From the IMG/VR virus record IMGVR_UViG_3300045243_000070, positions 1-64,000 of that record: a DNA stretch of 64,000 nucleotides; one strand, written 5' to 3'. A program made the translations under genes and the position numbers. The notes beneath the pieces are model-generated. The model had not been told where the DNA came from, made no database searches, and saw only the letters and a list, made by a program, of their open reading frames with translations. Positions 9,552 to 58,689 of the stretch are shown piece after piece (position 1 is the first letter of the stretch; each line of letters begins with the position of its first letter). This stretch comes from a virus.

Positions 9552-9683
9552 TTAATCGTCCCCATGTGTGAAATTGTAAAACTTTATTTGAAGCATTTGG
9601 ATGTGCTGGCGAATAATCACCCTTCCCAAAATCCAAAATATTTTAATCACCTGTTTTGTTTGTGCTACCGTCCAGAGTTTCAT
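9552..9683 (-). CDS. Small conserved protein, 43 aa (paralog of 6929-7060)
   Basis: MKLWTVAQTKQ ... QMLQIKFYNFTHGDD, same length as its paralog, with ribosome site AGAAGGT. An in-frame upstream ATG exists, but the paralog's start supports 9683. Confidence 0.75.
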   Translation of the reverse strand: MKLWTVAQTKQVIKIFWILGRVIIRQHIQMLQIKFYNFTHGDD

Positions 9684-9934
9684 ACCTTCTTTCCCCGCTT
9701 GAATTTTTCGTTCAAGGCCGAACAAAGCCACCTGTATTCCCTGATGCATTCCTTCCGGCCCCGCTCACCAAAAATTTGCATGTTCATTCCAATAATGCTA
9801 TCCCCATCTTTTGGTTTTATGCTCAGCCACACTTGCCCCGTTTTCCAAGGCTCATCACGTCTTTGCTTTTGGTCTTTACTCGGTGTCCAGTCCTCAATAA
9901 CTACACGGAAAGGCCCGTCAAATGGGCACTTCAT
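9680..9934 (-). CDS. Hypothetical protein, 84 aa
   Basis: Starts MKCPFDGPFRVVIEDWTPSK; basic C-terminus (LNEKFKRGKKV). Joined to both neighbours by 4-bp overlaps. No recognised domain. Confidence 0.65.
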   Translation of the reverse strand: MKCPFDGPFRVVIEDWTPSKDQKQRRDEPWKTGQVWLSIKPKDGDSIIGMNMQIFGERGRKECIREYRWLCSALNEKFKRGKKV

Positions 9935-10227
9935 GCTTTCACCTCGATGCTCGGACAGCCATAGGAATGCCCATGCTCAATGGGGTCAAGCGCACACAAA
10001 CATTTTGGTTCTTGCTCCTTGACCTCGATGCTCGGCTGTGGTGTTGGGATGAAATGCTTGAGGGTTTTGTTGATGCTCATATCCTTCAATGTTACTTCCT
10101 TATTGCCGGGGTATGTGATGCCCTCAATGACGCTCGTGCTGTAGTGCTCAAAACAGCGCTCAGCAATGCCTCTGTCATTCAATGGGAAGTCTCCCATGCC
10201 TTCGACTATGACGTTGAACCGTGCCAT
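9931..10227 (-). CDS. Hypothetical protein, 98 aa
   Basis: ATG at 10227 (MARFNVIVEGMGDFPL) with GGGGGAAGC upstream, preferred over an in-frame ATG at 10269 without a site. Two CxC/Cys-Pro motifs near the end (KCLCAL, YGCPSIEV). First gene after the promoter at 10260-10288. Confidence 0.7.
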   Translation of the reverse strand: MARFNVIVEGMGDFPLNDRGIAERCFEHYSTSVIEGITYPGNKEVTLKDMSINKTLKHFIPTPQPSIEVKEQEPKCLCALDPIEHGHSYGCPSIEVKA

Positions 10228-10259
10228 GCTTCCCCCTTTCGATGCTCGATGCTTGAACC

Positions 10260-10288
10260 ATACTACCATGCCTTGACGGAATTGTCAA
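10260..10288 (-). promoter_or_regulatory. Sigma-70-type promoter with extended -10
   Basis: Minus strand TTGACA, 17 bp ending TGG, TAGTAT. Confidence 0.85.
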
Positions 10289-15323: not shown

Positions 15324-15357
15324 GTCTTGCCCCCTAGCTGGTTTTCACTACTCTTTT

Positions 15358-15386
15358 ATAATAGCAAAAAAGGGGGATAGTGTCAA
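15358..15386 (-). promoter_or_regulatory. Sigma-70-type promoter
   Basis: Minus strand TTGACA, 17 bp ending TGC, TATTAT (extended -10). Confidence 0.85.
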
Positions 15387-15725
15387 TGCTTGCCCCTAGT
15401 ATTTAACGGCTTAATGCTTTTAGGTAGTTTATAACCATTTTGTAGGAATCTACATTATTGTAGAATGCCTTCCATAACGAAAAAAATTTCCCCTAGTGTA
15501 ATTTTGACCCTTAAAAACAGTCTAGATAAGCGCCCCCTAAAAACCCGCCAAACTTTGGGAGCATAGAAAACCGTTTGGCCTATTTTTACATTCTATAGGC
15601 CTTTAATTGAAAGATTTTTTATCATAGGGCAATCTTATAAAAAACTTTTTATCTTTTAGTTAAGGCCCTGTTATGTGTAAGAAATAACAACCCCGGCCCT
15701 CTCAAAATTTTTTATAAAAACTTTC
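15387..15725 (-). ncRNA. Possible non-coding transcript
   Basis: The promoter at 15726-15754 fires into about 340 bp with no credible reading frame before the next promoter. The stretch is AT-rich with short inverted repeats and contains the palindrome at 15449-15464. An untranslated RNA or a long leader reading through to 15323 are both possible. Confidence 0.3.
15449..15464. promoter_or_regulatory. Palindromic operator-like site 1
   Basis: TCTACA-TTAT-TGTAGA, a perfect 6-bp inverted repeat with 4-bp spacer, preceded by ATTTTGTAGGAA. Two further copies with the same outer bases at 18995 and 19816. Confidence 0.65.
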
Positions 15726-15754
15726 ATCATATCATAAAAAATCTTTTTTGTCAA
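15726..15754 (-). promoter_or_regulatory. Sigma-70-type promoter
   Basis: Minus strand TTGACA, 17 bp ending TGA, TATGAT. No gene follows for 400 bp. Confidence 0.75.
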
Positions 15755-16065
15755 GTAAAATAAATTTCACGACAAAAAAACTTTGCATTTAAACTCGATT
15801 TGAGCCCATGATTTTTTATAAAAAGGTTTTTTGTTAGCCTGCAATAAAAGGCCCTTTTACACTGCCCCGTTTTTGCATTCTTTGGGGCTTTTTCTGCACG
15901 GTTTTTTCTTTCGCATAAGGGCAATATGCGCCCACCCCCTGCCGTGGTACGCTCTGAGGGGCAGGGTAGGGACAAGTAAAAGAGGTTAAAAGAGTCTAAA
16001 AAGCGAATCTAGGGGGATAAATAGGGGCTTGTGGGACAGTAAAGGCATGAAAAAAGGGGAAATAA

Positions 16066-16099
16066 AAAAGCCCCTACCTTTGGGGAAAGGAGGGGCTTT
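16066..16099 (-). terminator. Intrinsic terminator
   Basis: AAGCCCCT ... AGGGGCTT stem with T6 on the minus strand, just beyond gene 16123-16578. Confidence 0.85.
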
Positions 16100-16122
16100 A
16101 ACTACTTGAAAGGGGTTTTTGT

Positions 16123-18416: not shown

Positions 18417-18428
18417 AACCTGCCCCCT

Positions 18429-18497
18429 TTAAAATTTTTCAAAAGCTAACAGCCCAACACCAAACAACAAAACCACTATAACAAAAACAATTTCCAC
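18429..18497 (-). CDS. Transmembrane microprotein, 22 aa, GTG start
   Basis: GTG after AAAAGGGGGCTTGAC; MEIVFVIVVLLFGVGLLAFE then KF. Almost entirely one membrane helix. It sits between a 57-aa gene and ardC with proper ribosome-site spacing. Tentative because of its size. Confidence 0.45.
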   Translation of the reverse strand: MEIVFVIVVLLFGVGLLAFEKF

Positions 18498-18498
18498 G

Positions 18499-18672
18499 TC
18501 AAGCCCCCTTTTCTAATTGTTTAATAATACCGTTTTCAACGGCTTTCACTACCCTTTCACCTATGACACGTCTTTCGGCTTGAAAGGCTCGTAAAACCTC
18601 AATAGGTAAAGGGCTCTTTTCATTCTTGACCCTTTTGACTCTCATTTTTAACAGCTCTTGAAATACGCTCAT
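18499..18672 (-). CDS. Small basic helical protein, 57 aa
   Basis: ATG after AAGGGGGCTTT; MSVFQELLKMRVKRVKNEKS then a second helix ending IIKQLEKGA. Rich in Arg/Lys; first gene after the promoter at 18707-18734. Confidence 0.65.
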   Translation of the reverse strand: MSVFQELLKMRVKRVKNEKSPLPIEVLRAFQAERRVIGERVVKAVENGIIKQLEKGA

Positions 18673-18706
18673 AAAGCCCCCTTCAAAACTTATTCCCTAC
18701 ACTTCA

Positions 18707-18734
18707 ATTTTATCAAGCCCTAAAAGATTGTCAA
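18707..18734 (-). promoter_or_regulatory. Sigma-70-type promoter, 16-bp spacer
   Basis: Minus strand TTGACA, 16 bp, TAAAAT. Confidence 0.7.
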
Positions 18735-18811
18735 CAAAAAAATTAAATTATTTTAGGGCTTTAAATATAGGCCTTTTAAAATATAAGGGTTTTTAGCCTA
18801 TTTCCCCCATT

Positions 18812-18848
18812 CTTGCATTTAAAGGCCTATTCCTTGAACGATTATTTA
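18812..18848. repeat. Dispersed intergenic repeat, copy g
   Basis: Plus strand CTTGCATTTAAAGGCC ... TTGAACGATTATTT; opposite orientation to copies a and c. Confidence 0.6.
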
Positions 18849-18994
18849 TTTAAGCCCCTATCGTATTAAGGCTTAGAGTTTTAAACATACTATTTTTCAA
18901 TTTCAGACTAAAAACTTTTGATTAAATTTTTTAGCTTGACAATTTCAAAAAACTCTGAAGGGCTTTTTACCTCTATCCTACAATTTTGTCTGAT

Positions 18995-19010
18995 TCTACA
19001 AAACTGTAGA
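18995..19010. promoter_or_regulatory. Palindromic operator-like site 2
   Basis: TCTACA-AAAC-TGTAGA; preceded by AATTTTGTCTGAT, matching the upstream flank of site 1. Confidence 0.65.
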
Positions 19011-19220
19011 CTATTCGGCGGATGACCTGCTTTTGCATTCTTTGGGCCTTTCCTTTGATCGAACACCTTTCCCTTATCATCTATCGTTAGTCCTCATTGT
19101 CACTTAAATTAGCCCCTATTATATGCAAACATTTTAGGTGCCTTAAAACGCCATATATTGCAAAAAATAAAACAAAATAATTCGCTCAATTATCTTTTGT
19201 ATGCCATTGACAGGCCCTAA

Positions 19221-19257
19221 TTTTGATTCTAAGGCCCTTTACTTGAACGATTATTTT
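19221..19257. repeat. Dispersed intergenic repeat, copy i
   Basis: Plus strand TTTTGATTCTAAGGCCC ... TTGAACGATTATTT, nearly the same composite as 18812-18848. Confidence 0.6.
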
Positions 19258-19303
19258 TATAGGCTATTAAAACAAGCAAGCCCAAACCCCTATAAAAACA
19301 AAA

Positions 19304-19336
19304 AGCCCCATACTACCCGAGGGGTAGCAGGGGCTA
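19304..19336 (-). terminator. Intrinsic terminator
   Basis: AGCCCC-CTACCC / GGGTAG-GGGGCT stem followed by T-rich sequence on the minus strand. Confidence 0.8.
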
Positions 19337-19363
19337 GGCCTATACTAGGGGTAGTGTAGGGTT

Positions 19364-19564
19364 TTAGGAGTATTTAACGTTAATCATCATATTATGGAAA
19401 CCCAGCAAAGCCCTTTTAAAATTGTCATAAAGATAGGACTGCTCAATTTCCCCCTTCCGGTTGACTACTTCAACCCAATATCCCCTAGTCCTGTCAGGGT
19501 TGAGAATTTTAGTATAGGTAATAGCCTTATTCCTGATAACCGCCTCCCTATAGGCTAGGACCAT
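19364..19564 (-). CDS. Hypothetical protein, 66 aa
   Basis: MVLAYREAVIRNKAITYTKI, then GYWVEVVNRKGEIEQSYLYD and a helix. The start overlaps the stop of an upstream membrane peptide. Function unknown. Confidence 0.65.
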   Translation of the reverse strand: MVLAYREAVIRNKAITYTKILNPDRTRGYWVEVVNRKGEIEQSYLYDNFKRALLGFHNMMINVKYS

Positions 19565-19565
19565 A

Positions 19566-19640
19566 TCACACCACCATCAAGAGAACGATATACAACCCGG
19601 CCACTACAAACCCCGCCTTGACTCCTAGTGATACCCTCAT
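19566..19640 (-). CDS. Transmembrane microprotein, 24 aa
   Basis: ATG at 19640 with AAGGGGGATGCAC upstream; MRVSLGVKAGFVVAGLYIVL then LMVV, one basic-tailed helix. An ATG two codons earlier is less well spaced. Translationally coupled to 19364-19564 (TGATATG). Confidence 0.45.
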   Translation of the reverse strand: MRVSLGVKAGFVVAGLYIVLLMVV

Positions 19641-19677
19641 GTGCATCCCCCTTGGTGTGTCTTACTGCCTACATAGA

Positions 19678-19706
19678 GATAATAACATAAGGGTTTTTAT
19701 TGTCAA
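19678..19706 (-). promoter_or_regulatory. Weak sigma-70-type promoter
   Basis: Minus strand TTGACA, 17 bp, ATTATC (or 18 bp, TTATCT). Confidence 0.5.
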
Positions 19707-19743
19707 CAATAAAAATAAAATAAATTAATAAATATTTATATAG

Positions 19744-19772
19744 TTGACAATTCTAGGGGATATGGTAGTATA
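19744..19772 (+). promoter_or_regulatory. Plus-strand promoter candidate
   Basis: TTGACA, 16 bp, TAGTAT (19766-19771), followed by operator-like site 3 about 45 bp downstream. Confidence 0.55.
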
Positions 19773-19815
19773 TGGGCAGGGGGAAACTATGCGATTATAA
19801 AGGGAATATTAAACA

Positions 19816-19831
19816 TCTACAATTTTGTAGA
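19816..19831. promoter_or_regulatory. Palindromic operator-like site 3
   Basis: TCTACA-ATTT-TGTAGA; read on the minus strand it is preceded by ATTTTGGTATAGT, so this copy is inverted relative to sites 1 and 2. Confidence 0.65.
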
Positions 19832-20014
19832 ACTATACCAAAATGTTTGGGTCCCATCGGTCCTAGACAAGGTGGAGCACGAAGCCTTCGAGGAGGTGCG
19901 GAATCTTATGGATGTTATAAGAATGATGAAGAGAAGGAAAGCACAGAAAAAGGAGTCCCTTTTGGGTCCTACTTCTGGGGCTCCCTTAAAATTTTAAAAA
20001 TGCATCATATTTTC

Positions 20015-20043
20015 TTGACATAGGGACTCCAGCGTGGTATACT
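20015..20043 (+). promoter_or_regulatory. Sigma-70-type promoter with extended -10
   Basis: TTGACA, 17 bp ending TGG, TATACT; 28 bp upstream of the first HNH gene. Confidence 0.85.
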
Positions 20044-20070
20044 TACAGTAATACTTACCGAGGAGTTTGT

Positions 20071-32353: not shown

Positions 32354-32382
32354 AGTGTACCATACCCTTAACCATTTGTCAA
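32354..32382 (-). promoter_or_regulatory. Sigma-70-type promoter with extended -10
   Basis: Minus strand TTGACA, 17 bp ending TGG, TACACT; overlaps the end of gene 32379-32738 and abuts the next start codon. Confidence 0.75.
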
Positions 32383-34630: not shown

Positions 34631-34736
34631 TCTTCACCTTTTTCTTTTTATTTGGCACGACCTTGGGGCTGGGATTGAACCCCCAGACAACACGTCTCTT
34701 TTTAGGTTTTCCCAGCCTTATCTTTTCGGTCTTCAA
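34590..34736 (-). CDS. Small basic conserved phage protein, 48 aa, TTG start
   Basis: TTG at 34736 with AAGGAATAAAAG; KKRRVVWGFNPSPKVVPNKK is the R-V-V-W-G-x-N-P motif of very small basic phage proteins, usually ending in a basic Lys/Arg tail. Overlaps the next gene by 41 bp. Function unknown; the motif makes a real gene likely. Confidence 0.65.
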   Translation of the reverse strand: MKTEKIRLGKPKKRRVVWGFNPSPKVVPNKKKKVKNDRRSWKSQSIDM

Positions 34737-34739
34737 CTT

Positions 34740-35849
34740 TTATTCCTTGTAGTGCTCCAAGAACTTGTTGGATACAACCTTGAAGGACACACGGCCCTTC
34801 ATGTAGTCGCTGTATTTCTCCACGAGCGGACGGAACACAATCCCCTCTCTTGGAGTTCCGTTGGCATAGGAGCCATCAGCCATAGCCAGCATTTCATCAA
34901 ACTTGCGTCCAGTGAAGTCGAAATTGGAGTCAATAATCTCGACAGTCTGTAACCCCAATTCTTTGGTGAAGGAAATGAACTCATCAAAGTTAAGATGTCT
35001 GCGTTCAGAGATGTTGAACACATTGAACACAAAGAAGTCAACCTCCTTCAAGCCCATCTTGTTGCCTTGGATGCCAGGACCGCAGATTTCACCTTGGACG
35101 GCGTAATTTCCTTTGGCCTTAAGCTTATCAAGGATGTTGTATTTCTGTTCCATTTGGAAGTACACGTTTGGCTTATCCCCCTCAATTGGAGCCTTGAGAG
35201 ACAGTTTGCGTGAGCAGACGTGTTGTTCACCATCCGTCAGTCCATCCGGCAAGAAGTTGATGTAGGTTGCTGAGGTTCCATCCATCTTGACGGAAGCGTA
35301 ACCCTTGACCCCATTAAGCTCTTCCAGAATTCGTGAGCAGTTTTGAAGACGTTCTTCGTCCGTAACTGACACGTATTTGGTGGGGAAGTTACCCTTAATC
35401 TTTCCATGTAGGTTGGCGGGAATAGGTTTCTCATACTTGGTAACACCAATGAGGGTGGTGATGTCATCACCGACCAGCATTCCTGCGAACCCAACGGTTC
35501 CAGTCGATAAACCTTCAATCCCAGGTTCTTTTTTTAAATCTGTCAGCTGGATGATAAGCCCCTGAGAGAGTTGTTTCTTCAGGCGAATGGTGCGGACACG
35601 GAAGTGACTCTTCCGTAAAAATTCGGACCACGGGGCTTCTGGAACTACAGTATCAATGGCAATAAAACATACTAGGTCTCCAACCTTATGCAATTCTTTC
35701 TGAACAACCACCTGCCATTCATTGTCTTCCATTTTAGCCAGTTCTATCTTATCAGCATCGGGTATTGGGCTAAGGGATTTAATTTTTTGAATAGTGGCTA
35801 AATTTTTAACCACCTCTACTGTTTCTACAGTCTCTGAAACTTCACTCAT
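34740..35849 (-). CDS. RNA ligase (DRB0094/Rnl5-type), 369 aa
   Basis: K188 in YASVKMDGTSATY is the nucleotidyl-transfer lysine of motif I (K-x-D-G); REGIVFRP (motif IV) and GRVSFKVVSNKFL (motif V) are near the C-terminus. N-terminal 1-130 is an OB-like domain as in the Deinococcus-type ligases. Seals RNA nicks with ATP; in phages it repairs host- or self-cleaved tRNAs. Second RNA ligase of the operon. Confidence 0.85.
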   Translation of the reverse strand: MSEVSETVETVEVVKNLATIQKIKSLSPIPDADKIELAKMEDNEWQVVVQKELHKVGDLVCFIAIDTVVPEAPWSEFLRKSHFRVRTIRLKKQLSQGLIIQLTDLKKEPGIEGLSTGTVGFAGMLVGDDITTLIGVTKYEKPIPANLHGKIKGNFPTKYVSVTDEERLQNCSRILEELNGVKGYASVKMDGTSATYINFLPDGLTDGEQHVCSRKLSLKAPIEGDKPNVYFQMEQKYNILDKLKAKGNYAVQGEICGPGIQGNKMGLKEVDFFVFNVFNISERRHLNFDEFISFTKELGLQTVEIIDSNFDFTGRKFDEMLAMADGSYANGTPREGIVFRPLVEKYSDYMKGRVSFKVVSNKFLEHYKE

Positions 35850-36226
35850 TGTAAATACTCCTTTGCTTTTTGTAATAATTCAACGCTATCTCTAAATAAA
35901 CCTAATCCAGAATTACACCGATGGCATAAAATTCCACGAATATTCCCAGTCTTGTGGTCGTGGTCTATACAAGCTCTACCTTCAGTACCTTTTCCACGAA
36001 CCTCTCTTTTTAATGGGTAGCCACATATCCCGCATCTCCCACGAAAAGCTTGATATAAGGCCTCAAAATATTCCTCATCTATTCCATACTTTTTTAAATA
36101 ACCCCATTGTTTTTTATACTCACTTAAAGTTCCAGTTCGTATCATCCTACTTAAACAATGACATTTTCGACACCTTTTCCCCCATGTCATCGTGGAGCAA
36201 CCAAGGCATTTTTTCTTCTTACTCAA
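35846..36226 (-). CDS. Endonuclease VII-like HNH protein, 126 aa, TTG start
   Basis: CLGCSTMTWGKRCRKC zinc site; CGICGYPL ... ACIDHDHKTGNIRGILC-HRCN-SGLGLF is the recombination endonuclease VII/HNH core with its Cys zinc pair and catalytic DHDH. Overlaps its neighbours by 4 bp. Could act as Holliday-junction resolvase or homing enzyme. Confidence 0.85.
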   Translation of the reverse strand: MSKKKKCLGCSTMTWGKRCRKCHCLSRMIRTGTLSEYKKQWGYLKKYGIDEEYFEALYQAFRGRCGICGYPLKREVRGKGTEGRACIDHDHKTGNIRGILCHRCNSGLGLFRDSVELLQKAKEYLQ

Positions 36227-37101
36227 ATAAATGTTCCATCTCCAACGTCAATGACGTTTATTTTTTCCGTTCTGAGCATTTCAATAACACTCACCCGGTC
36301 ATCAAACCAAAATTTAATCTTGCTCTTATCCAAAAGCCTATCAATGAACTGCTTCTTCACGACAGTGTCTGGACGAGTGTCTTTAGACGGCCTCATGATG
36401 AACCTGTCTGGCTCGATATTATACTTATAAAGCCACTCTTCACGAACTTGACGATAATCCTCAGAGCACCCAGATACAATAATCAAGTCCAGCCCATTCG
36501 CTTGGTGACGAAGAACCGTTTCAATAATGTCAAGACGTGGTGCATCGTTAATGCTTTGACGAGAGAACTCGTCCCAATCCGGTTTCTTTCCAGTAGACTT
36601 ATCGACCAGATAACGTCTTTTACTGACATCACACAGAGTCCCATCAAGATCACTGACTACACAATTGTTGGTAGACCTCAATATGTTATACCTGAAAGCT
36701 GTGTTTAATATAGTGTCTTTACCAACAAAGCGTTTTCCAGAAAACTGTCTATCTAAATCCCTCTCAATACACTCTCTAACCGGGGTGTCTACTTTGACTT
36801 CCTCAAAGTCGGCATTGTACCTCTCAGCCAACACCTTGTAGGCGGTAGCATTTGACGGAGCTAAGTTCATATTATCAATGACCACGTTGTGGCCCTGGCT
36901 CAAGAGGTGTTCAACCATGAACTCATTGGCGAGGTGAATCATCTTCTCGTGTCTTGGGTCAAAATTCTCAAAATACATCATCTTGCGTAGACTGTCTTTG
37001 TTCACGCAAAACGTGTTTCGGTTTTCCTTCACGATCTTTTGAGCAATTGTGGACTTACCACTGCCTTGAAGACCTTGGAGCATCCAAATTTTTAATTTCA
37101 T
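36223..37101 (-). CDS. pseT: Polynucleotide 5'-kinase/3'-phosphatase, 292 aa
   Basis: P-loop GLQGSGKS at residues 10-17 (kinase); C-terminal HAD phosphatase beginning SDLDGTLCD (D151, D153), then VSGCSEDYRQVREEW and FWFDDR. Same order and length as T4 Pnk. Heals RNA (and DNA) ends by removing 3' phosphates and phosphorylating 5' OH, for ligases such as those encoded on either side. Confidence 0.9.
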   Translation of the reverse strand: MKLKIWMLQGLQGSGKSTIAQKIVKENRNTFCVNKDSLRKMMYFENFDPRHEKMIHLANEFMVEHLLSQGHNVVIDNMNLAPSNATAYKVLAERYNADFEEVKVDTPVRECIERDLDRQFSGKRFVGKDTILNTAFRYNILRSTNNCVVSDLDGTLCDVSKRRYLVDKSTGKKPDWDEFSRQSINDAPRLDIIETVLRHQANGLDLIIVSGCSEDYRQVREEWLYKYNIEPDRFIMRPSKDTRPDTVVKKQFIDRLLDKSKIKFWFDDRVSVIEMLRTEKINVIDVGDGTFI

Positions 37102-37118
37102 TTCTTCCTACCGATTTA

Positions 37119-37232
37119 TTATAGACAACAAATAGCTAAAAATATCAACCAACCCCAGCCTTCCTTACCATACCACGCCAGAAAAATAGCTCCGGCAGTC
37201 GCCAATAGTGCAATCCACCAAGACCCTTTCAT
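37119..37232 (-). CDS. Small membrane protein, 37 aa
   Basis: ATG after GGAGGACTC; MKGSWWIALLATAGAIFLAW and YGKEGWGWLIFLAICCL form two short hydrophobic segments. Between pnk and rnlA-like genes. Function unknown. Confidence 0.6.
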   Translation of the reverse strand: MKGSWWIALLATAGAIFLAWYGKEGWGWLIFLAICCL

Positions 37233-37241
37233 GAGTCCTCC

Positions 37242-38396
37242 TTAAGTATTTTTGCTCACCTTATGAATCATTTCCAGAAGAGAGTCATCCCGAAGCCCCA
37301 TCAAATACTCTTTCAAACTGTACAGACAGGTCTTGTTATCATAAAGAGCGAAGAGAGTGTTTGGAAAGGACTTTTTGTAAGCTTCGATAGCAAAAGCCTT
37401 CCGGTTAATTTTTACTTCCCAAGTCTGGTTATCTGCTGGCATTTCTCTCCAGTCCGCACGAATAGTATCCTCTACTTTTTGTAATCCGTCAAGTAGTTTC
37501 TGAATATGGGCTGTGTATTCTGGGAAATAGGCCAAAGTATCGTCCACTTTCCCCAACTTAATCACCTCTAAGAAGCCTTTCTCTGAAACAGAGGAAACCA
37601 TTTTAGACAAGGCTAGGTACGCAGGGTTCTTGCACTTGACACGCAAGTGGGAACCGTTGTTTTGTTCCTTTACAATCACATAACCCTCAAACGTAGGGTC
37701 TTTGGAGCTCATATCCTCAATCTCGGTCCATTCAGATACTGGAAATGTTTTGACCAAATCACACTTAAAAACATCTGCCATAGTTTGAAGCTCGTGTCTT
37801 GTTACTTCGCACAGGTTTTCGTTGCTACGAATAGTTAGAAGAGTTATTTTTGTTTCTTTGTATGGAGTAACTATTCTATTTTCTGGGCTAGTGAGCTCAA
37901 AAACATAGGTGCATCTTGGATTAAGTAATTTGTTTTCTATCAAATACTCTAACTTTGTCCCATTATCAACACCATCCATAAAAAGTTCCGCAAAGCTCTT
38001 AGAGGAACAGTTATTAACAGGCCCCTCGGCATAAATCATGTTTCTAGTGCTGAAATGCCACGAATTGGCAATACGGTCAAACCACATATTGACCATTGTT
38101 CCATCAAGTTTCTCTAAAACCAAACAACCGCTCAGGTCTTCTGGAAGTTTGTCGGCCCCGCCCTCCCCTAAGTTGAAGAAACGTGAGAACCCATAAGAAG
38201 CAATATCATAATTGTCTTTGTACAGAATAAGACCACGGCACTCCCTAACAATGGGGTCACCTTTGAACTTATAGCTGTCAATCATATCGTATGAAAATAT
38301 GAACTTGCCACCCAGCTCTTTGAAATTGATTCCAAGAGGGGCGCAAATTTCTTCGGGTGTCTTTCCAGACCGTAGAGCTTCTTGTATTTTTAACAT
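37242..38396 (-). CDS. rnlA: T4 RnlA-like RNA ligase, 384 aa
   Basis: ATG at 38396; a longer frame opening at a GTG (38411) overlaps the promoter. K96 in LVLEKLDGTMVNM is motif I (K-x-D-G); RECRG at about 51 and FEGYVIVKEQ (motif IV), HLRVKCKNPAYL (motif V) follow. Joins 5'-P and 3'-OH RNA ends. Pnk and ligase next to each other form the tRNA-repair pair known in T4. A promoter places the start codon at the transcript end. Confidence 0.85.
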   Translation of the reverse strand: MLKIQEALRSGKTPEEICAPLGINFKELGGKFIFSYDMIDSYKFKGDPIVRECRGLILYKDNYDIASYGFSRFFNLGEGGADKLPEDLSGCLVLEKLDGTMVNMWFDRIANSWHFSTRNMIYAEGPVNNCSSKSFAELFMDGVDNGTKLEYLIENKLLNPRCTYVFELTSPENRIVTPYKETKITLLTIRSNENLCEVTRHELQTMADVFKCDLVKTFPVSEWTEIEDMSSKDPTFEGYVIVKEQNNGSHLRVKCKNPAYLALSKMVSSVSEKGFLEVIKLGKVDDTLAYFPEYTAHIQKLLDGLQKVEDTIRADWREMPADNQTWEVKINRKAFAIEAYKKSFPNTLFALYDNKTCLYSLKEYLMGLRDDSLLEMIHKVSKNT

Positions 38397-38401
38397 GTTA
38401 T

Positions 38402-38430
38402 ATCCTACCACAAGATAGCTACGGTGTCAA
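38402..38430 (-). promoter_or_regulatory. Sigma-70-type promoter, immediately before start codon
   Basis: Minus strand TTGACA, 17 bp ending TGG, TAGGAT; AGGAT can also act as a ribosome site for transcripts reading through. Confidence 0.6.
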
Positions 38431-44691: not shown

Positions 44692-45327
44692 CTATATTTC
44701 AAAGGTAACTGCCGGATTAACTGGTTTGTAGCGAACATCACAACTTGAGGCATTTAAAAACGTAGTGGTTTTTGAGTCATTAAACCATCCAAACTCCATC
44801 CGTCCATAACCTTCGTGTATGTGACCAAATACATTAAACCTTGGTTTAGCCTTAAGGCAACGGTTGAATAGTGACTCACTACCAACATACCCGTCTCTTT
44901 CTACTTTGTCAAGCACTTTTTTTGGCGGACCGTGGGTAATCAGCATATCCAAGTCTTCTGGTATCTTAGAAAATACCTCTACAAGGTCGTGGTCTGGCTT
45001 CATAAAGGCCCAACGTCCATATTCGGGAACCCAAGGGGAGCCATAAAATCTCTTTCCATCTATTTCAATAAACTCGTCTATAAGCAGAGTTGCATGGGTA
45101 AGTTCTTGTTTGCACATCTGGGGAAGTTCTTCACAAATGAAGTCATGGTTGCCTGGGACAAGCAGGATTTTTTTTGCCGGGAGGGTTCCAAGCCATATGT
45201 TGAATTTCATTAGCTCAACTAATGAGCCACCCATAGAAAAATCTCCGCAATGCAAAAGTACGTCACATTCTGGTATATGCAAACTTTCATGTTTATTGTG
45301 CGTGTCACTAATTGCGACAATCCTCAA
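44692..45327 (-). CDS. Metallophosphoesterase, 211 aa, TTG start
   Basis: AISDTHNKHESL (D-x-H), LLHCGDFS (GD), VPGNHDFI (GNH-D), ITHGPP and FGHIHEGYG supply all metallophosphoesterase motifs. Could act on nucleotides or nucleic acids. A related but shorter enzyme is at 52417-52941. Confidence 0.85.
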   Translation of the reverse strand: MRIVAISDTHNKHESLHIPECDVLLHCGDFSMGGSLVELMKFNIWLGTLPAKKILLVPGNHDFICEELPQMCKQELTHATLLIDEFIEIDGKRFYGSPWVPEYGRWAFMKPDHDLVEVFSKIPEDLDMLITHGPPKKVLDKVERDGYVGSESLFNRCLKAKPRFNVFGHIHEGYGRMEFGWFNDSKTTTFLNASSCDVRYKPVNPAVTFEI

Positions 45328-45866
45328 AGTCCGCTCCTATGCCTTACCAGCCTGTCTAGGTAGGCCATAAATTCTTGATATGTTTTATCCAACTTTGCAG
45401 AATTACAGAATCTACAGCAACTAACACAATTTCCTCTTACATATCCCTTAGAACTATCAACCCTATCAATACCATTATATTTAATCTCAACTCTTCTTTT
45501 TTCTGGTCCATAAGTATTGTCTGGCTCACACCCACAATAGTGACAGTTACCTTTTATTAGAGCCACAGTCTCATCTATTGCTAACGAGAAACTCTTTCCC
45601 CTAAGTTTGGCTTGGGCCTTTATGTTACCTGCCTTGGCTCTAAATGAAGCCAATTCTGGGGGATATTTTTTGTTTCCATGACCCCACGTAAAATTTAAAC
45701 ACCCGCAAGACTTTACAAGACCTCTAAGCAGATGAGAAGTCGTAACGTCTCTATTCATTCCGCAAACACACAGACACTTCCAAACAACACCTATTTTATC
45801 TCTTTTCTTTTTCATTACCAATAAACTACCAAATTTTAAACCTTCAAGTTTTGGGGAAACGCTCAT
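45324..45866 (-). CDS. HNH endonuclease, 180 aa
   Basis: N-terminal Cys pairs (CLCVCG, SCGCLNF); HNH core CHYCGCEPD ... IKYNGIDRVDSSKGYV-R ... CCRFCNSAKLDKTY. Phage homing-endonuclease type with GIDRVD catalytic region. Confidence 0.85.
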   Translation of the reverse strand: MSVSPKLEGLKFGSLLVMKKKRDKIGVVWKCLCVCGMNRDVTTSHLLRGLVKSCGCLNFTWGHGNKKYPPELASFRAKAGNIKAQAKLRGKSFSLAIDETVALIKGNCHYCGCEPDNTYGPEKRRVEIKYNGIDRVDSSKGYVRGNCVSCCRFCNSAKLDKTYQEFMAYLDRLVRHRSGL

Positions 45867-46033
45867 TTTTGTTTCTTTTTGGTATCAATCTTTTGGTTAA
45901 GCTTTGCGCCCTCTTTACGAGCCAATAAAGTTGCTTGTTCTTCCGTTATCAGCCCCTGATTAATTGCTTCAACCAGTAGGTCAACGGTTACGTTTATCTT
46001 TCTAATTTTTTTATTTAATATTTCTTTTTTCAT
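45863..46033 (-). CDS. Small basic helical protein, 56 aa
   Basis: ATG with AAATTT-rich leader; MKKEILNKKIRKINVTVDLL then VEAINQGLITEEQATLLARK. First (5'-most) gene of the minus-strand run, next to the RNA locus. Possibly DNA- or RNA-binding. Confidence 0.55.
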   Translation of the reverse strand: MKKEILNKKIRKINVTVDLLVEAINQGLITEEQATLLARKEGAKLNQKIDTKKKQK

Positions 46034-46228
46034 TTTAAATTTCTTTCTATAATGTTTTACGTCTAAACACCAAGTAAGAGTCCATCGGTTTGCACACCTA
46101 GACCAGGAGGTCCGACCCTCTTAAGTTCCCATAAACTGGACTTAGGCCCAGTCAGCGTCAGGTCTTGCAAGTTTCCCTCCGCTTTATGAGTCACCTACTT
46201 ACATACAGTGCTTAGACATCAAACATCT
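46034..46228 (-). ncRNA. Structured downstream part of RNA locus (candidate)
   Basis: No open frame. Paired segments visible on the minus strand: ACTGG / CCAGT hairpin (46135-46152), GGAGG / CCTCC (46176-46180 with 46106-46110) and GGTCCGACC (46109-46117). Probably the 3' part of the transcript started at 46407. Confidence 0.4.
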
Positions 46229-46229
46229 T

Positions 46230-46401
46230 AAGTCACCCAAAACTGGGGTGGGGCTACTGTAGTGCGTTGCCGGGTCTCATGAAAACCCAACCGTGGGACT
46301 CGAACCCACATCTCCAGCCTTTGTGCTGGTGTCCTACCATTAGACGAGAAATGCACTATGAGGCTGCTCCCGCTTTGACCAACCCCATTTTCCGGTGACT
46401 T
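46230..46401 (-). ncRNA. Structured RNA with embedded tRNA-like arms
   Basis: Promoter at 46414-46442. An outer helix of about 20 bp pairs 46379-46401 with 46230-46253 (AAGTCACC ... GGTGACTT; TGGGGT ... ACCCCA). An inner 6-bp stem TAGTGC/GCACTA (46353-46358, 46260-46265). Inside are a D-arm-like GTC-TAATGGTAG-GAC, an anticodon-like hairpin CCAGC-ACAAAG-GCTGG (6-nt loop) and a perfect T-arm GTGGG-TTCGAGT-CCCAC. A normal acceptor stem is missing, so this is not an ordinary tRNA. Confidence 0.65.
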
Positions 46402-46413
46402 ACTTATGGACAC

Positions 46414-46442
46414 AGTGTACTACAAAACAAACAACTTGTCAA
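46414..46442 (-). promoter_or_regulatory. Sigma-70-type promoter for RNA 2
   Basis: Minus strand TTGACA, 17 bp, TACACT. Confidence 0.8.
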
Positions 46443-46445
46443 GTA

Positions 46446-46561
46446 AAAAAAGAAACCTGGGGTGGGGATTGCAACCCACTAGTGGAGGGCTATCCCCCAC
46501 ACCTAACAACTGAACGCCCATGTGTGTCTTACCACACCGCCCAGGCTTTCCCTACTAAGGA
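46446..46561 (-). ncRNA. Small structured RNA with terminator-like 3' end
   Basis: From a promoter at 46568-46596. Closing stem AAGCCTGGG / CCCAGGTTT (46540-46548, 46453-46461), directly followed by TTTCTTTTTTT. Inside: GTGT-GGTAAG-ACAC (D-arm-like), a GC-rich hairpin GTGGGG ... CTCCAC, and GTGGG-TTGCAATC-CCCAC, like a T-arm but with G in place of the invariant C and one extra loop base. Resembles a tRNA but lacks a standard anticodon arm. Confidence 0.65.
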
Positions 46562-46567
46562 AATACA

Positions 46568-46596
46568 ACTATACTCCAAAACATTCTTTTTGTCAA
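46568..46596 (-). promoter_or_regulatory. Sigma-70-type promoter for RNA 1
   Basis: Minus strand TTGACA, 17 bp, TATAGT. Confidence 0.85.
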
Positions 46597-46661: not shown

Positions 46662-47480
46662 TTGCCCAACCCAGAAACAAAAGAAGAATTTGAAAAGTTC
46701 GTAGATAGCAATCCCAATAAGGCCTGGAAATTTTACCTACCTTTTGGTGATGAGTATATTGAAAAATCTCTTACGTCAGAAAAACAAGACACTGACGAAA
46801 AGAGTTGGAAGATCGGTGGGATTGCTTCAAGCAACGAAGAAGATTTGGAAGCTGAAATTGTTGTTCCAGAAGGAATTGATGTCAGCTATTTTTTGAAGTG
46901 GGGTTGGTTCAACTCCGAACACAAAAAAGGCGCTGCATATAAAGTTGGGATTCCAACCAAAGCGATGTGTACGAGAAAAGGTCTTGAAGTTGAAGGATAT
47001 CTTTTAAAAGATATGCCCGAAGCGCAGGGCATTTATACCTTAATGAAGACGTTGAGAAAGGGAGATCACAGACGCTCAGTTGGTTTTTCCATCGAAGGAA
47101 AAACTGTCCTTCAACAAGGAAAAAGAATTCTTAAAAGCTTCCTCATCGACATTGCCATTACAGCCAACCCAGTCAACCCTACAACCTATGCCGACCTTGT
47201 GAAATCACTTAAAACATGCTCTACAGATAACTCACTGGAATCCATGTCTTACCTCTCTACCGATAAGGCTTTAGAGGCTGGATATGCTGTAGATGGTCAA
47301 ACCGGAGGGGACGCTTTGAGGACTCAAGACCTCGAAAGAAAGCTTAAAATCCTCACAAATAAGAGCTTTTCACCGGAAGATGCCTTGGAATACGTGAAGC
47401 TTAAGGCCGGGGTTACTGACGATGTAGCCAAGAAGATTCTAAAATATTCAGACCTTCTTAAGAAGCTGAAGGGTCAATAA
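46662..47480 (+). CDS. Prohead protease, 272 aa, TTG start
   Basis: TTG after AAGGAGACCGTC. KWGWFNSEHKKG contains a candidate catalytic His (87) and GDHRRSVGFSIEG the Ser (139), in the layout of HK97/herpes-type prohead proteases. First gene of the head block. Its C-terminal region (residues 202-233) closely matches residues 28-59 of the major capsid protein. Confidence 0.8.
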   Translation: MPNPETKEEFEKFVDSNPNKAWKFYLPFGDEYIEKSLTSEKQDTDEKSWKIGGIASSNEEDLEAEIVVPEGIDVSYFLKWGWFNSEHKKGAAYKVGIPTKAMCTRKGLEVEGYLLKDMPEAQGIYTLMKTLRKGDHRRSVGFSIEGKTVLQQGKRILKSFLIDIAITANPVNPTTYADLVKSLKTCSTDNSLESMSYLSTDKALEAGYAVDGQTGGDALRTQDLERKLKILTNKSFSPEDALEYVKLKAGVTDDVAKKILKYSDLLKKLKGQ

Positions 47481-57313: not shown

Positions 57314-57973
57314 ATGCCAGTCAGTTCCCCAGAAGTTACAATCGAAAATATCATACAAAATGGGTTTGCTGACATTGTGGCAAATGCTTCTACATACATT
57401 CCACTTATTTTGGCTAACTTCCCAACTGACTATCGCACAGACGCTATAGCCTACTTAACTGGACCTAATTTTAAAATAAATACTTTTTTTGGGTACGCCT
57501 ACGACACGTCAGAAATGCCAGTGTTTAATATAGTCTTGTCGAGCGAATCCGAGGGAACCGGAGCAAGCCGTCAAATGTATCTTGGAGACATCGTGGAAGC
57601 TGCTGACGACAATCCTAACACTCAAGACTACGAACAATTTGGAAGCATGTGGTCAGCATCTATCTCCGTTATTGTTCGTTGCCAAAAAGCCAGACAAACG
57701 ATAATTCTTTATGCTTTAACTAAGTGGTTGATGTTAAAAAATCGTGTCGCTTTAGAAACCGCTGGAATCATGGCTACAAAATTCAGTGGTAGCGACCTTG
57801 TTTATGACAAAACAAAAGAACCCACTTTTACTTTTGCAAGAACGTGGAAGATGGATTGTCTGGTATTTAATACCTACGACTTGGATATTACTTCTGACCC
57901 AACACTTCTAACCGTTGTCTCTGCATTTAATTCGGAGGTCAGAGGTCTTCCTCAGGAACAAGAAGAGTCTTAA
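57314..57973 (+). CDS. Tail terminator-like protein, 219 aa
   Basis: MPVSSPEVTIENIIQNGFAD, VSVIVRCQKARQTIILYALT and a beta-rich C-terminus. Position between neck protein and sheath suits the tail terminator; the sequence match is only a general fold impression. Confidence 0.55.
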   Translation: MPVSSPEVTIENIIQNGFADIVANASTYIPLILANFPTDYRTDAIAYLTGPNFKINTFFGYAYDTSEMPVFNIVLSSESEGTGASRQMYLGDIVEAADDNPNTQDYEQFGSMWSASISVIVRCQKARQTIILYALTKWLMLKNRVALETAGIMATKFSGSDLVYDKTKEPTFTFARTWKMDCLVFNTYDLDITSDPTLLTVVSAFNSEVRGLPQEQEES

Positions 57974-58689
57974 TCCCAGTGAGCTTTTCTTGCACGGAGC
58001 AAGAACTCATTGAGTTTGTCTGGGTCGTTAGTATGGTTTGGATTGGTTTCGTAAGCCTTAACCAATTCACCTTCAAGATGCTGAGCCCAATCAATAACCA
58101 TACCCTTACTGTATTCTCCTGACTTAAGAGCCCTTAACGCCTTAGCATAGTTAAACTCTTCATCATAATGAATATTAAGATTAGAGTCTAAATAATCGGG
58201 CATTATTTCAAACTGTTTTTGAACATTTATTGTTAAAGAATCATGTTTCAAAAGCTCAATTCCAAGTAACAATACACGAATATAAGCCACCGCATACTTC
58301 CAGGGTCGGTTGTCTTTATCTTCAAGAAACTTTTTTCGTTGGTTAATGGAGTACCCACGGAAAGCTTCAAGAACTCCCTTAGATGTCCACATGTATGGAA
58401 ATAATGATTTAAGCTCTTCACCCCAAGGAGTGGATTCCATAACTGGGCCGTGTAGGACTTCTAAAACCGTTGCATTTGATTTTAAGGCCATGAACAAGAA
58501 TTTGTTCAACTCATAGGCAGTGTCATCCGTGTCCCCCTCATTCCAAGAGACTTGATCGGCTTTGCCACCAAGCTTTAAGATTTCGGACGTGGGGGCAATA
58601 AATACTCCACGGTAATCATAGTCGCTTGTAGGAGTTTCCAGCCCGTGTGCTCTACTTCCAACTAGGGTCTTTAAAATCATTTTGTTCAT
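57970..58689 (-). CDS. Pol-beta-type nucleotidyltransferase, 239 aa
   Basis: TLVGSRAHGLETPTSDYDYR-GV is the G-S-x-x-x-G ... D-x-D signature of the COG3541-like nucleotidyltransferases. DDTAYELNKFLFMALKSNAT follows. Full length, minus strand, overlaps the tail terminator gene by 4 bp. Role unknown: related enzymes modify RNA or act in toxin modules. Confidence 0.8.
   Translation of the reverse strand: MNKMILKTLVGSRAHGLETPTSDYDYRGVFIAPTSEILKLGGKADQVSWNEGDTDDTAYELNKFLFMALKSNATVLEVLHGPVMESTPWGEELKSLFPYMWTSKGVLEAFRGYSINQRKKFLEDKDNRPWKYAVAYIRVLLLGIELLKHDSLTINVQKQFEIMPDYLDSNLNIHYDEEFNYAKALRALKSGEYSKGMVIDWAQHLEGELVKAYETNPNHTNDPDKLNEFLLRARKAHWD

What the first reader, a model, noticed from the sequence alone, without database searches (positions are those of the whole stretch)
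46230..46567. Phage RNA locus with tRNA-like arms but no acceptor stem
Two strong, separately promoted minus-strand units (RNA 1 about 46446-46561; RNA 2 from about 46407) produce structured RNAs. RNA 2 has a perfect T-arm, a D-arm-like element and an anticodon-like hairpin, all placed inside a 6-bp stem and a long outer helix of about 20 bp, so it cannot be an ordinary tRNA. RNA 1 has its own closing stem and a T-run. Large ornate phage RNAs such as GOLLD and ROOL sit near tRNAs, so a related class is possible; decoy tRNAs against anticodon nucleases would fit the RNA-repair genes nearby. Function is unproved.
Basis: partly seen in the sequence, partly recalled or inferred. Interest (0 to 1): 0.8.

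Follow-up and report, generated by a model that had tools for sequence, protein, structure and literature searches.

The report
Phage tRNA-like RNAs that cannot decode
A large virus of bacteria carries two or three compact RNA genes folded partly like transfer RNAs but unable to read codons (and, in one case, with no normal end for an amino acid), probably tRNA mimics of unknown function comparable to the long-unexplained stable RNAs C and D of phage T4.

Summary
The locus is real. In a 73-kb SPO1-like (Herelleviridae-like) phage record, 46,059-46,561 (minus) holds three compact noncoding RNA folds beside likely genuine sigma-70-type promoters. RNA 2 contains a tRNA D-arm, anticodon arm and T-arm (Rfam tRNA, 33.3 bits, gathering 29, model 10-63 of 71). 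There is no normal acceptor stem: a 10-bp hairpin follows the T-arm, and the whole sits in a 6-bp stem and an outer helix of about 19 bp (0 of 1000 flank shuffles fold as well). Both have 6-nt anticodon loops, so neither should decode. RNA 3, downstream, is strongly structured but not tRNA-like. GOLLD, ROOL and tmRNA are not found. No ortholog turned up in about 50 related phage records, so the unusual parts lack covariation support; only the tRNA-like arms covary with three other short-loop RNAs. Best reading: tRNA-derived, non-decoding stable RNAs, comparable in kind to T4 RNA C and D, most likely tRNA mimics or decoys. Structure is moderately supported; function is inference.

The parts
46568..46596 (-). 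promoter-like site of RNA 1 (TTGACA-17-TATAGT)
   Evidence: 11 of 12 matches; one of 31 strong minus-strand sites
46453..46548 (-). RNA 1: class-II-like tRNA-like cloverleaf. AAGCCUGGG/CCCAGGUUU acceptor-like stem, D-arm-like GUGUG/CACAC, anticodon-like arm with 6-nt loop, long variable arm, T-arm-like hairpin with 8-nt loop
   Evidence: only ARAGORN hit in the window at 95% of threshold, 'tRNA-?(SeC|Leu)(ca)'; 2 of 2000 shuffles reach that level; acceptor helix mean pair probability 0.92
46443..46452 (-). U-rich tract after RNA 1 (possible terminator)
   Evidence: sequence CUUUUUUU directly after the closing stem; not scored as a classical terminator
46414..46442 (-). promoter-like site of RNA 2 (TTGACA-17-TACACT)
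   Evidence: 10 of 12 matches; same hexamers as the site at 32382
46229..46402 (-). RNA 2: tRNA-like core inside a long outer helix
   Evidence: z -4.45; with the core fixed, 0 of 1000 flank shuffles fold as well
46293..46345 (-). tRNA core of RNA 2: D-arm, anticodon arm with 6-nt loop ACAAAG, T-arm with UUCGAGU loop
   Evidence: Rfam RF00005 33.3 bits, model 10-63 of 71; arms covary with L004, L105 and L104
46269..46291 (-). hairpin GUUGGGUUUU-CAU-GAGACCCGGC that follows the T-arm where the acceptor 3' strand should be
   Evidence: mean pair probability 0.92
46260..46358 (-). closing stem UAGUGC/GCACUA around the tRNA core; possible displaced acceptor stem
   Evidence: mean pair probability 0.61
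46059..46219 (-). RNA 3: 14-bp outer helix with multibranched interior, no tRNA features, probably co-transcribed with RNA 2
   Evidence: z -4.0, 1 of 1000 shuffles; most helices have pair probability above 0.9; no Rfam match; no promoter-like site of its own

Best explanation
RNA 1 and RNA 2 are stable phage RNAs derived from tRNAs that have lost decoding. They are transcribed leftwards from sigma-70-type, probably early, promoters. Each keeps much of the tRNA scaffold (D-arm, anticodon arm, T-arm) but has a 6-nt anticodon loop. In RNA 2 the acceptor arm is replaced by a hairpin beside the T-arm, and the ends are buried in a long helix, so it should not be charged or enter the ribosome as a tRNA. 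Most likely, by inference, they act as tRNA mimics: folded bodies that occupy or mislead a factor recognising tRNA shape, such as a tRNA-cleaving host defence or a tRNA-processing or modifying enzyme, in a phage that also carries tRNA-repair genes. Shown by computation: the folds, the tRNA homology of the arms, the lost decoding geometry and the promoter matches. Inferred: transcription, stability, three-dimensional folding and the decoy role.
For: Rfam tRNA match above gathering covering D- to T-arm only. RNA 1 is the best ARAGORN candidate in 64 kb and 2 of 2000 shuffles score as well. The two tRNA signals come from different programs and lie about 107 nt apart. The outer structure of RNA 2 beats all 1000 flank shuffles. 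The arms covary with three other short-loop RNAs: 98% of cells paired, 7 cells changed on both sides, 0 of 500 shuffles reach the covariation score. Promoters belong to a strand-biased genome-wide series. The ORFs tested over the locus have no PHROG match. RNA-repair genes are present. T4 RNA C and D are a precedent for stable phage RNAs of unknown function (PMC9697503), and RNA C carries a perfect T-arm.
Against: No ortholog of RNA 1 or RNA 2 in about 50 SPO1-like records, so the outer helix, displaced stem and inserted hairpin have no covariation support. RNA 1 has an ordinary folding energy (z -1.75) and a weak, G-U-rich anticodon stem. No transcript data. The 6-nt loops lack a normal anticodon, which weakens a decoy role against anticodon nucleases that read the anticodon.
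Confidence: 0.5

Rival explanations
1. Decaying remnants of a phage tRNA cluster (pseudo-tRNAs) with no present function.
For: No intact tRNA gene in the window or in the rest of the 73-kb record; both anticodon loops are broken; other Herelleviridae-like phages carry annotated pseudo-tRNAs, for example Enterococcus phage EF1.
Against: All 14 arm pairs of RNA 2 are intact; its outer structure is far beyond chance; strong promoter matches sit just upstream of both units. Decay should not add a long helix.
Confidence: 0.25
2. A structured 5' leader or processing element of the leftward operon (45863-46033, HNH endonuclease-like 45324-45866, and on), in which RNA 2 and RNA 3 are cut out by RNase III, RNase P or RNase Z, or control expression.
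For: RNA 2 and RNA 3 lie directly upstream of leftward genes with no terminator-like site between RNA 3 and those genes; long outer helices are typical RNase III substrates (general knowledge).
Against: RNA 1 has its own promoter match and ends in a U-tract; tRNA features are not needed for a leader; no known riboswitch or T-box match.
Confidence: 0.15
3. Real but unusual tRNAs, such as frameshift-suppressing tRNAs with shortened anticodon loops; RNA 2 would mature through its displaced acceptor stem UAGUGC/GCACUA after removal of the inserted hairpin.
For: Related short-loop RNAs in L105 and L004 keep 7-bp acceptor stems and lie in tRNA arrays.
Against: RNA 2 has no acceptor next to its T-arm and no encoded CCA; neither loop offers a usual anticodon; ARAGORN rejects both at its default threshold.
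Confidence: 0.07
4. A member or relative of the large ornate RNAs GOLLD or ROOL, or of tmRNA.
For: Phage location and elaborate folding; GOLLD and ROOL are often near tRNA islands (PMC12286853).
Against: No match to any such family at gathering or at E up to 10; units are 100-190 nt; ARAGORN finds no tmRNA at default settings.
Confidence: 0.02

Closest known systems
Phage T4 stable RNAs C and D (species 1 and 2 RNA)
   Same: Noncoding phage RNAs of 119-139 nt; RNA C has a perfect T-arm in a non-tRNA fold; function unknown (PMC9697503)
   Different: T4 RNAs sit in a cluster with eight real tRNAs and are late (PMC9697503); no sequence match; RNA 2 here also keeps the D- and anticodon arms and adds a long outer helix
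Short-loop tRNA-like RNAs in Alicyclobacillus phage KKP_3916 (L004:1494-1563) and IMG/VR contig L105:7218-7287
   Same: Same D-, anticodon and T-arm pattern with a 6-nt anticodon loop (AYANAR) closed by CCNGC/GCNGG
   Different: They keep a normal 7-bp acceptor stem and lie in tRNA arrays; no inserted hairpin. L105 has a possible 9-bp outer helix, not tested against relatives
Ordinary phage tRNAs that evade tRNA-cleaving defences (T5 and others; PMC10264068, PMC11555353)
   Same: tRNA scaffold, possible link to tRNA-targeting defence and repair
   Different: Those are functional, chargeable tRNAs; these should not decode
GOLLD and ROOL
   Same: Structured phage noncoding RNAs of unknown function
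   Different: Much larger, different fold, no Rfam match here

Membership tests
tRNA (Rfam RF00005) | 7-bp acceptor stem joined directly to the T-arm | tested here: not met
   RNA 2: Rfam match stops at model position 63 and a hairpin follows the T-arm. RNA 1 has a stem in the right place but scores below ARAGORN's default threshold
tRNA (Rfam RF00005) | 7-nt anticodon loop with a three-base anticodon | tested here: not met
   6-nt loops in RNA 1 (UUCAGU) and RNA 2 (ACAAAG)
tRNA (Rfam RF00005) | D-arm, T-arm and anticodon stem | tested here: met
   RNA 2: all 14 pairs form, and the anticodon and T stems covary with three other sequences
tmRNA | tRNA-like domain plus tag reading frame | tested here: not met
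   cmscan and default ARAGORN negative
GOLLD / ROOL | match to the covariance model | tested here: not met
   no hit at gathering or at E up to 10
T4 RNA C/D-like stable RNAs | discrete stable transcript during infection | not testable with these tools
   no transcriptome for this phage
T4 RNA C/D-like stable RNAs | location within a phage tRNA cluster | tested here: not met
   no tRNA in the 73-kb record, which may be incomplete

The most novel reading that the evidence does not exclude
RNA 2 is a topologically circularly permuted, end-capped tRNA mimic. Its order is D-arm, anticodon arm, T-arm, then a hairpin standing for both acceptor strands (GUUGGGU/ACCCGGC) closed by a short loop, with the 5' and 3' ends leaving between acceptor and D-arm through a long outer helix. 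It would present a tRNA-shaped body with no chargeable end, a kind of viral decoy that I have not seen described. One unpaired G between T-arm and hairpin, and the lack of orthologs, keep this speculative.
Probability: 0.15. Interest if true: 0.75.

Novelty: new variant of a known kind. Interest (0 to 1): 0.5.

Why it matters
Phages carry tRNAs, tRNA-repair enzymes and a few stable RNAs, such as T4 RNA C and D, whose function is still unknown (PMC9697503). A compact locus with two independently promoted, non-decoding tRNA-like RNAs in a phage with a set of RNA-repair genes gives a clean system for asking whether phages make tRNA mimics against tRNA-targeting defences. It also shows that default tRNA finders miss such RNAs.

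Tried and rejected
GOLLD, ROOL, tmRNA, riboswitch or ribozyme identity: no Rfam match. Orthologs via prohead protease, major capsid protein and covariance models of RNA 2 and RNA 1 over about 50 SPO1-like records: none. The one significant RNA 2 model hit (L095) was an ordinary tRNA-Arg, so that model scores up to about 36 bits on plain tRNAs, and only L004 and L105 (44 bits) stand above that. BLAST hits in Erythrobacter, Vibrio, Microbacterium and inovirus records looked like ordinary tRNAs. A T-arm-like motif at 34680 (minus) lies in a short reading frame after the RNA ligase gene (frame read by eye) and was dropped. ARAGORN hits to permuted tmRNAs and tRNA-Pyl at low thresholds are artefacts of lowering the cut-off. 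Two pattern scans for RNA 2-specific sequence found nothing. Paper searches for non-decoding phage tRNA-like RNAs found none; the library is only part of the literature.

Full report
Setting. The window lies in a 72,981-base IMG/VR virus record. The major capsid protein is 45% identical to that of Bacillus phages of the SPO1 type, and head protease and tail sheath match phage families, so this is a Herelleviridae-like phage. Minus-strand genes run leftwards from about 46,033 and structural genes start rightwards at 46,662. The 630 bases between contain the finding.

Observation. The minus strand carries two promoter matches, TTGACA-17-TATAGT and TTGACA-17-TACACT, each just upstream of a compact fold. 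Across the window 31 strong promoter matches lie on the minus strand and 5 on the plus; shuffled windows give 8-18 in all, so these promoters are probably part of a real series. Its outer structure is not a by-product of the tRNA core: with the core fixed, none of 1000 flank shuffles folds as well. Pair probabilities are 0.90-0.98 for the outer helix, 1.00 for the T-arm, 0.96 for the anticodon arm, 0.92 for the inserted hairpin, 0.61 for the closing stem and 0.54 for the D-arm.

tRNA homology. The only Rfam match in 64 kb is tRNA, 33.3 bits, covering D-arm to T-arm and stopping before the acceptor. ARAGORN draws it with an 8-bp acceptor stem, D-arm, long variable arm, T-arm and a two-base anticodon. 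RNA 1 and RNA 2 therefore share a 6-nt anticodon loop and lie next to each other. RNA 1's folding energy alone is ordinary (z -1.75), so its case rests on the tRNA layout.

Relatives. No ortholog was found. Protease and capsid searches of IMG/VR gave capsids of at most 48% identity, and covariance models of RNA 2 and RNA 1 found nothing specific in about 50 records. These models were built from one sequence each, and records very close to the window may be hidden by the tools, so the absence is weak evidence. A pattern for the short anticodon loop found RNAs in two IMG/VR contigs and a Chloroflexi assembly contig (L104 and L106 carry the same sequence); one in Alicyclobacillus phage KKP_3916 had come from BLAST. 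L105 and L004 keep a normal acceptor stem (read). Aligned with these, the three arms of RNA 2 pair in 98% of cells, with compensatory changes at four pairs. The search pattern fixed part of the anticodon stem, but not the third pair of that stem nor the T-stem, where the changes occur. This supports the tRNA-like arms, not the unusual outer parts.

Mechanism. The sequence shows loss of decoding (6-nt loops, no usual anticodon) and, for RNA 2, loss of a chargeable end. Retained D- and T-arms suggest that the tRNA elbow could still form. The same genome encodes two RNA ligases, a PNKP-like kinase-phosphatase and an RlaP-like protein, which suggests tRNA damage as a threat. I therefore favour tRNA mimicry, but the target is unknown and nothing has been tested at the bench. 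Work on T5 and T6 shows that phage tRNAs can replace or distract tRNA-cleaving defences (PMC11555353, PMC13096335); those are real tRNAs.

Comparison. The nearest known kind is the pair of stable RNAs C and D of phage T4, function unknown (PMC9697503). T4 RNA C has a perfect T-arm in a larger fold. The window RNAs are not sequence relatives. In tRNA arrays of Alicyclobacillus phage KKP_3916, Enterococcus phage VRE9_4 and two IMG/VR contigs I also saw oversize RNAs of 114-139 nt with a tRNA acceptor stem and T-arm, so odd tRNA-like RNAs may be common in such phages; of these only the Alicyclobacillus one is clearly more stable than shuffles (z -3.9; the others z -2.3, 0.2 and -1.3).

Verdict. 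A real locus with an unusual product: non-decoding tRNA-like RNAs, a new variant of a known kind. Structure moderately supported, function unproved.

Noticed in passing
window 46059-46219 (-): Third compact RNA (RNA 3) after RNA 2: 14-bp outer helix, multibranched, z -4.0, no Rfam match, no tRNA features.
   Followed up: partly
L004:1719-1840, L111:715-828, L112:1169-1291, L113:449-587: Oversize tRNA-like RNAs (114-139 nt) in phage tRNA arrays: 7-bp acceptor stem joined to a T-arm, the rest replaced; L004, L112 and L113 examples are not called by ARAGORN.
   Followed up: partly
L004:1494-1563 (Alicyclobacillus phage KKP_3916, 11612-11681): Unannotated tRNA-like gene with a 6-nt anticodon loop; ARAGORN calls it tRNA-??? 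(ag).
   Followed up: partly
window 1-46651 (-): Strongly strand-biased series of TTGACA-17-TAnnnT promoter matches, likely early promoters.
   Followed up: no
window 34740-38411 and 57970-58689: RNA-repair set: two RNA ligases, PNKP-like kinase-phosphatase, RlaP.
   Followed up: no
window 18417-20070, 15324-16122, 9566-10284: Long stretches without convincing ORFs, some with stable folds.
   Followed up: no
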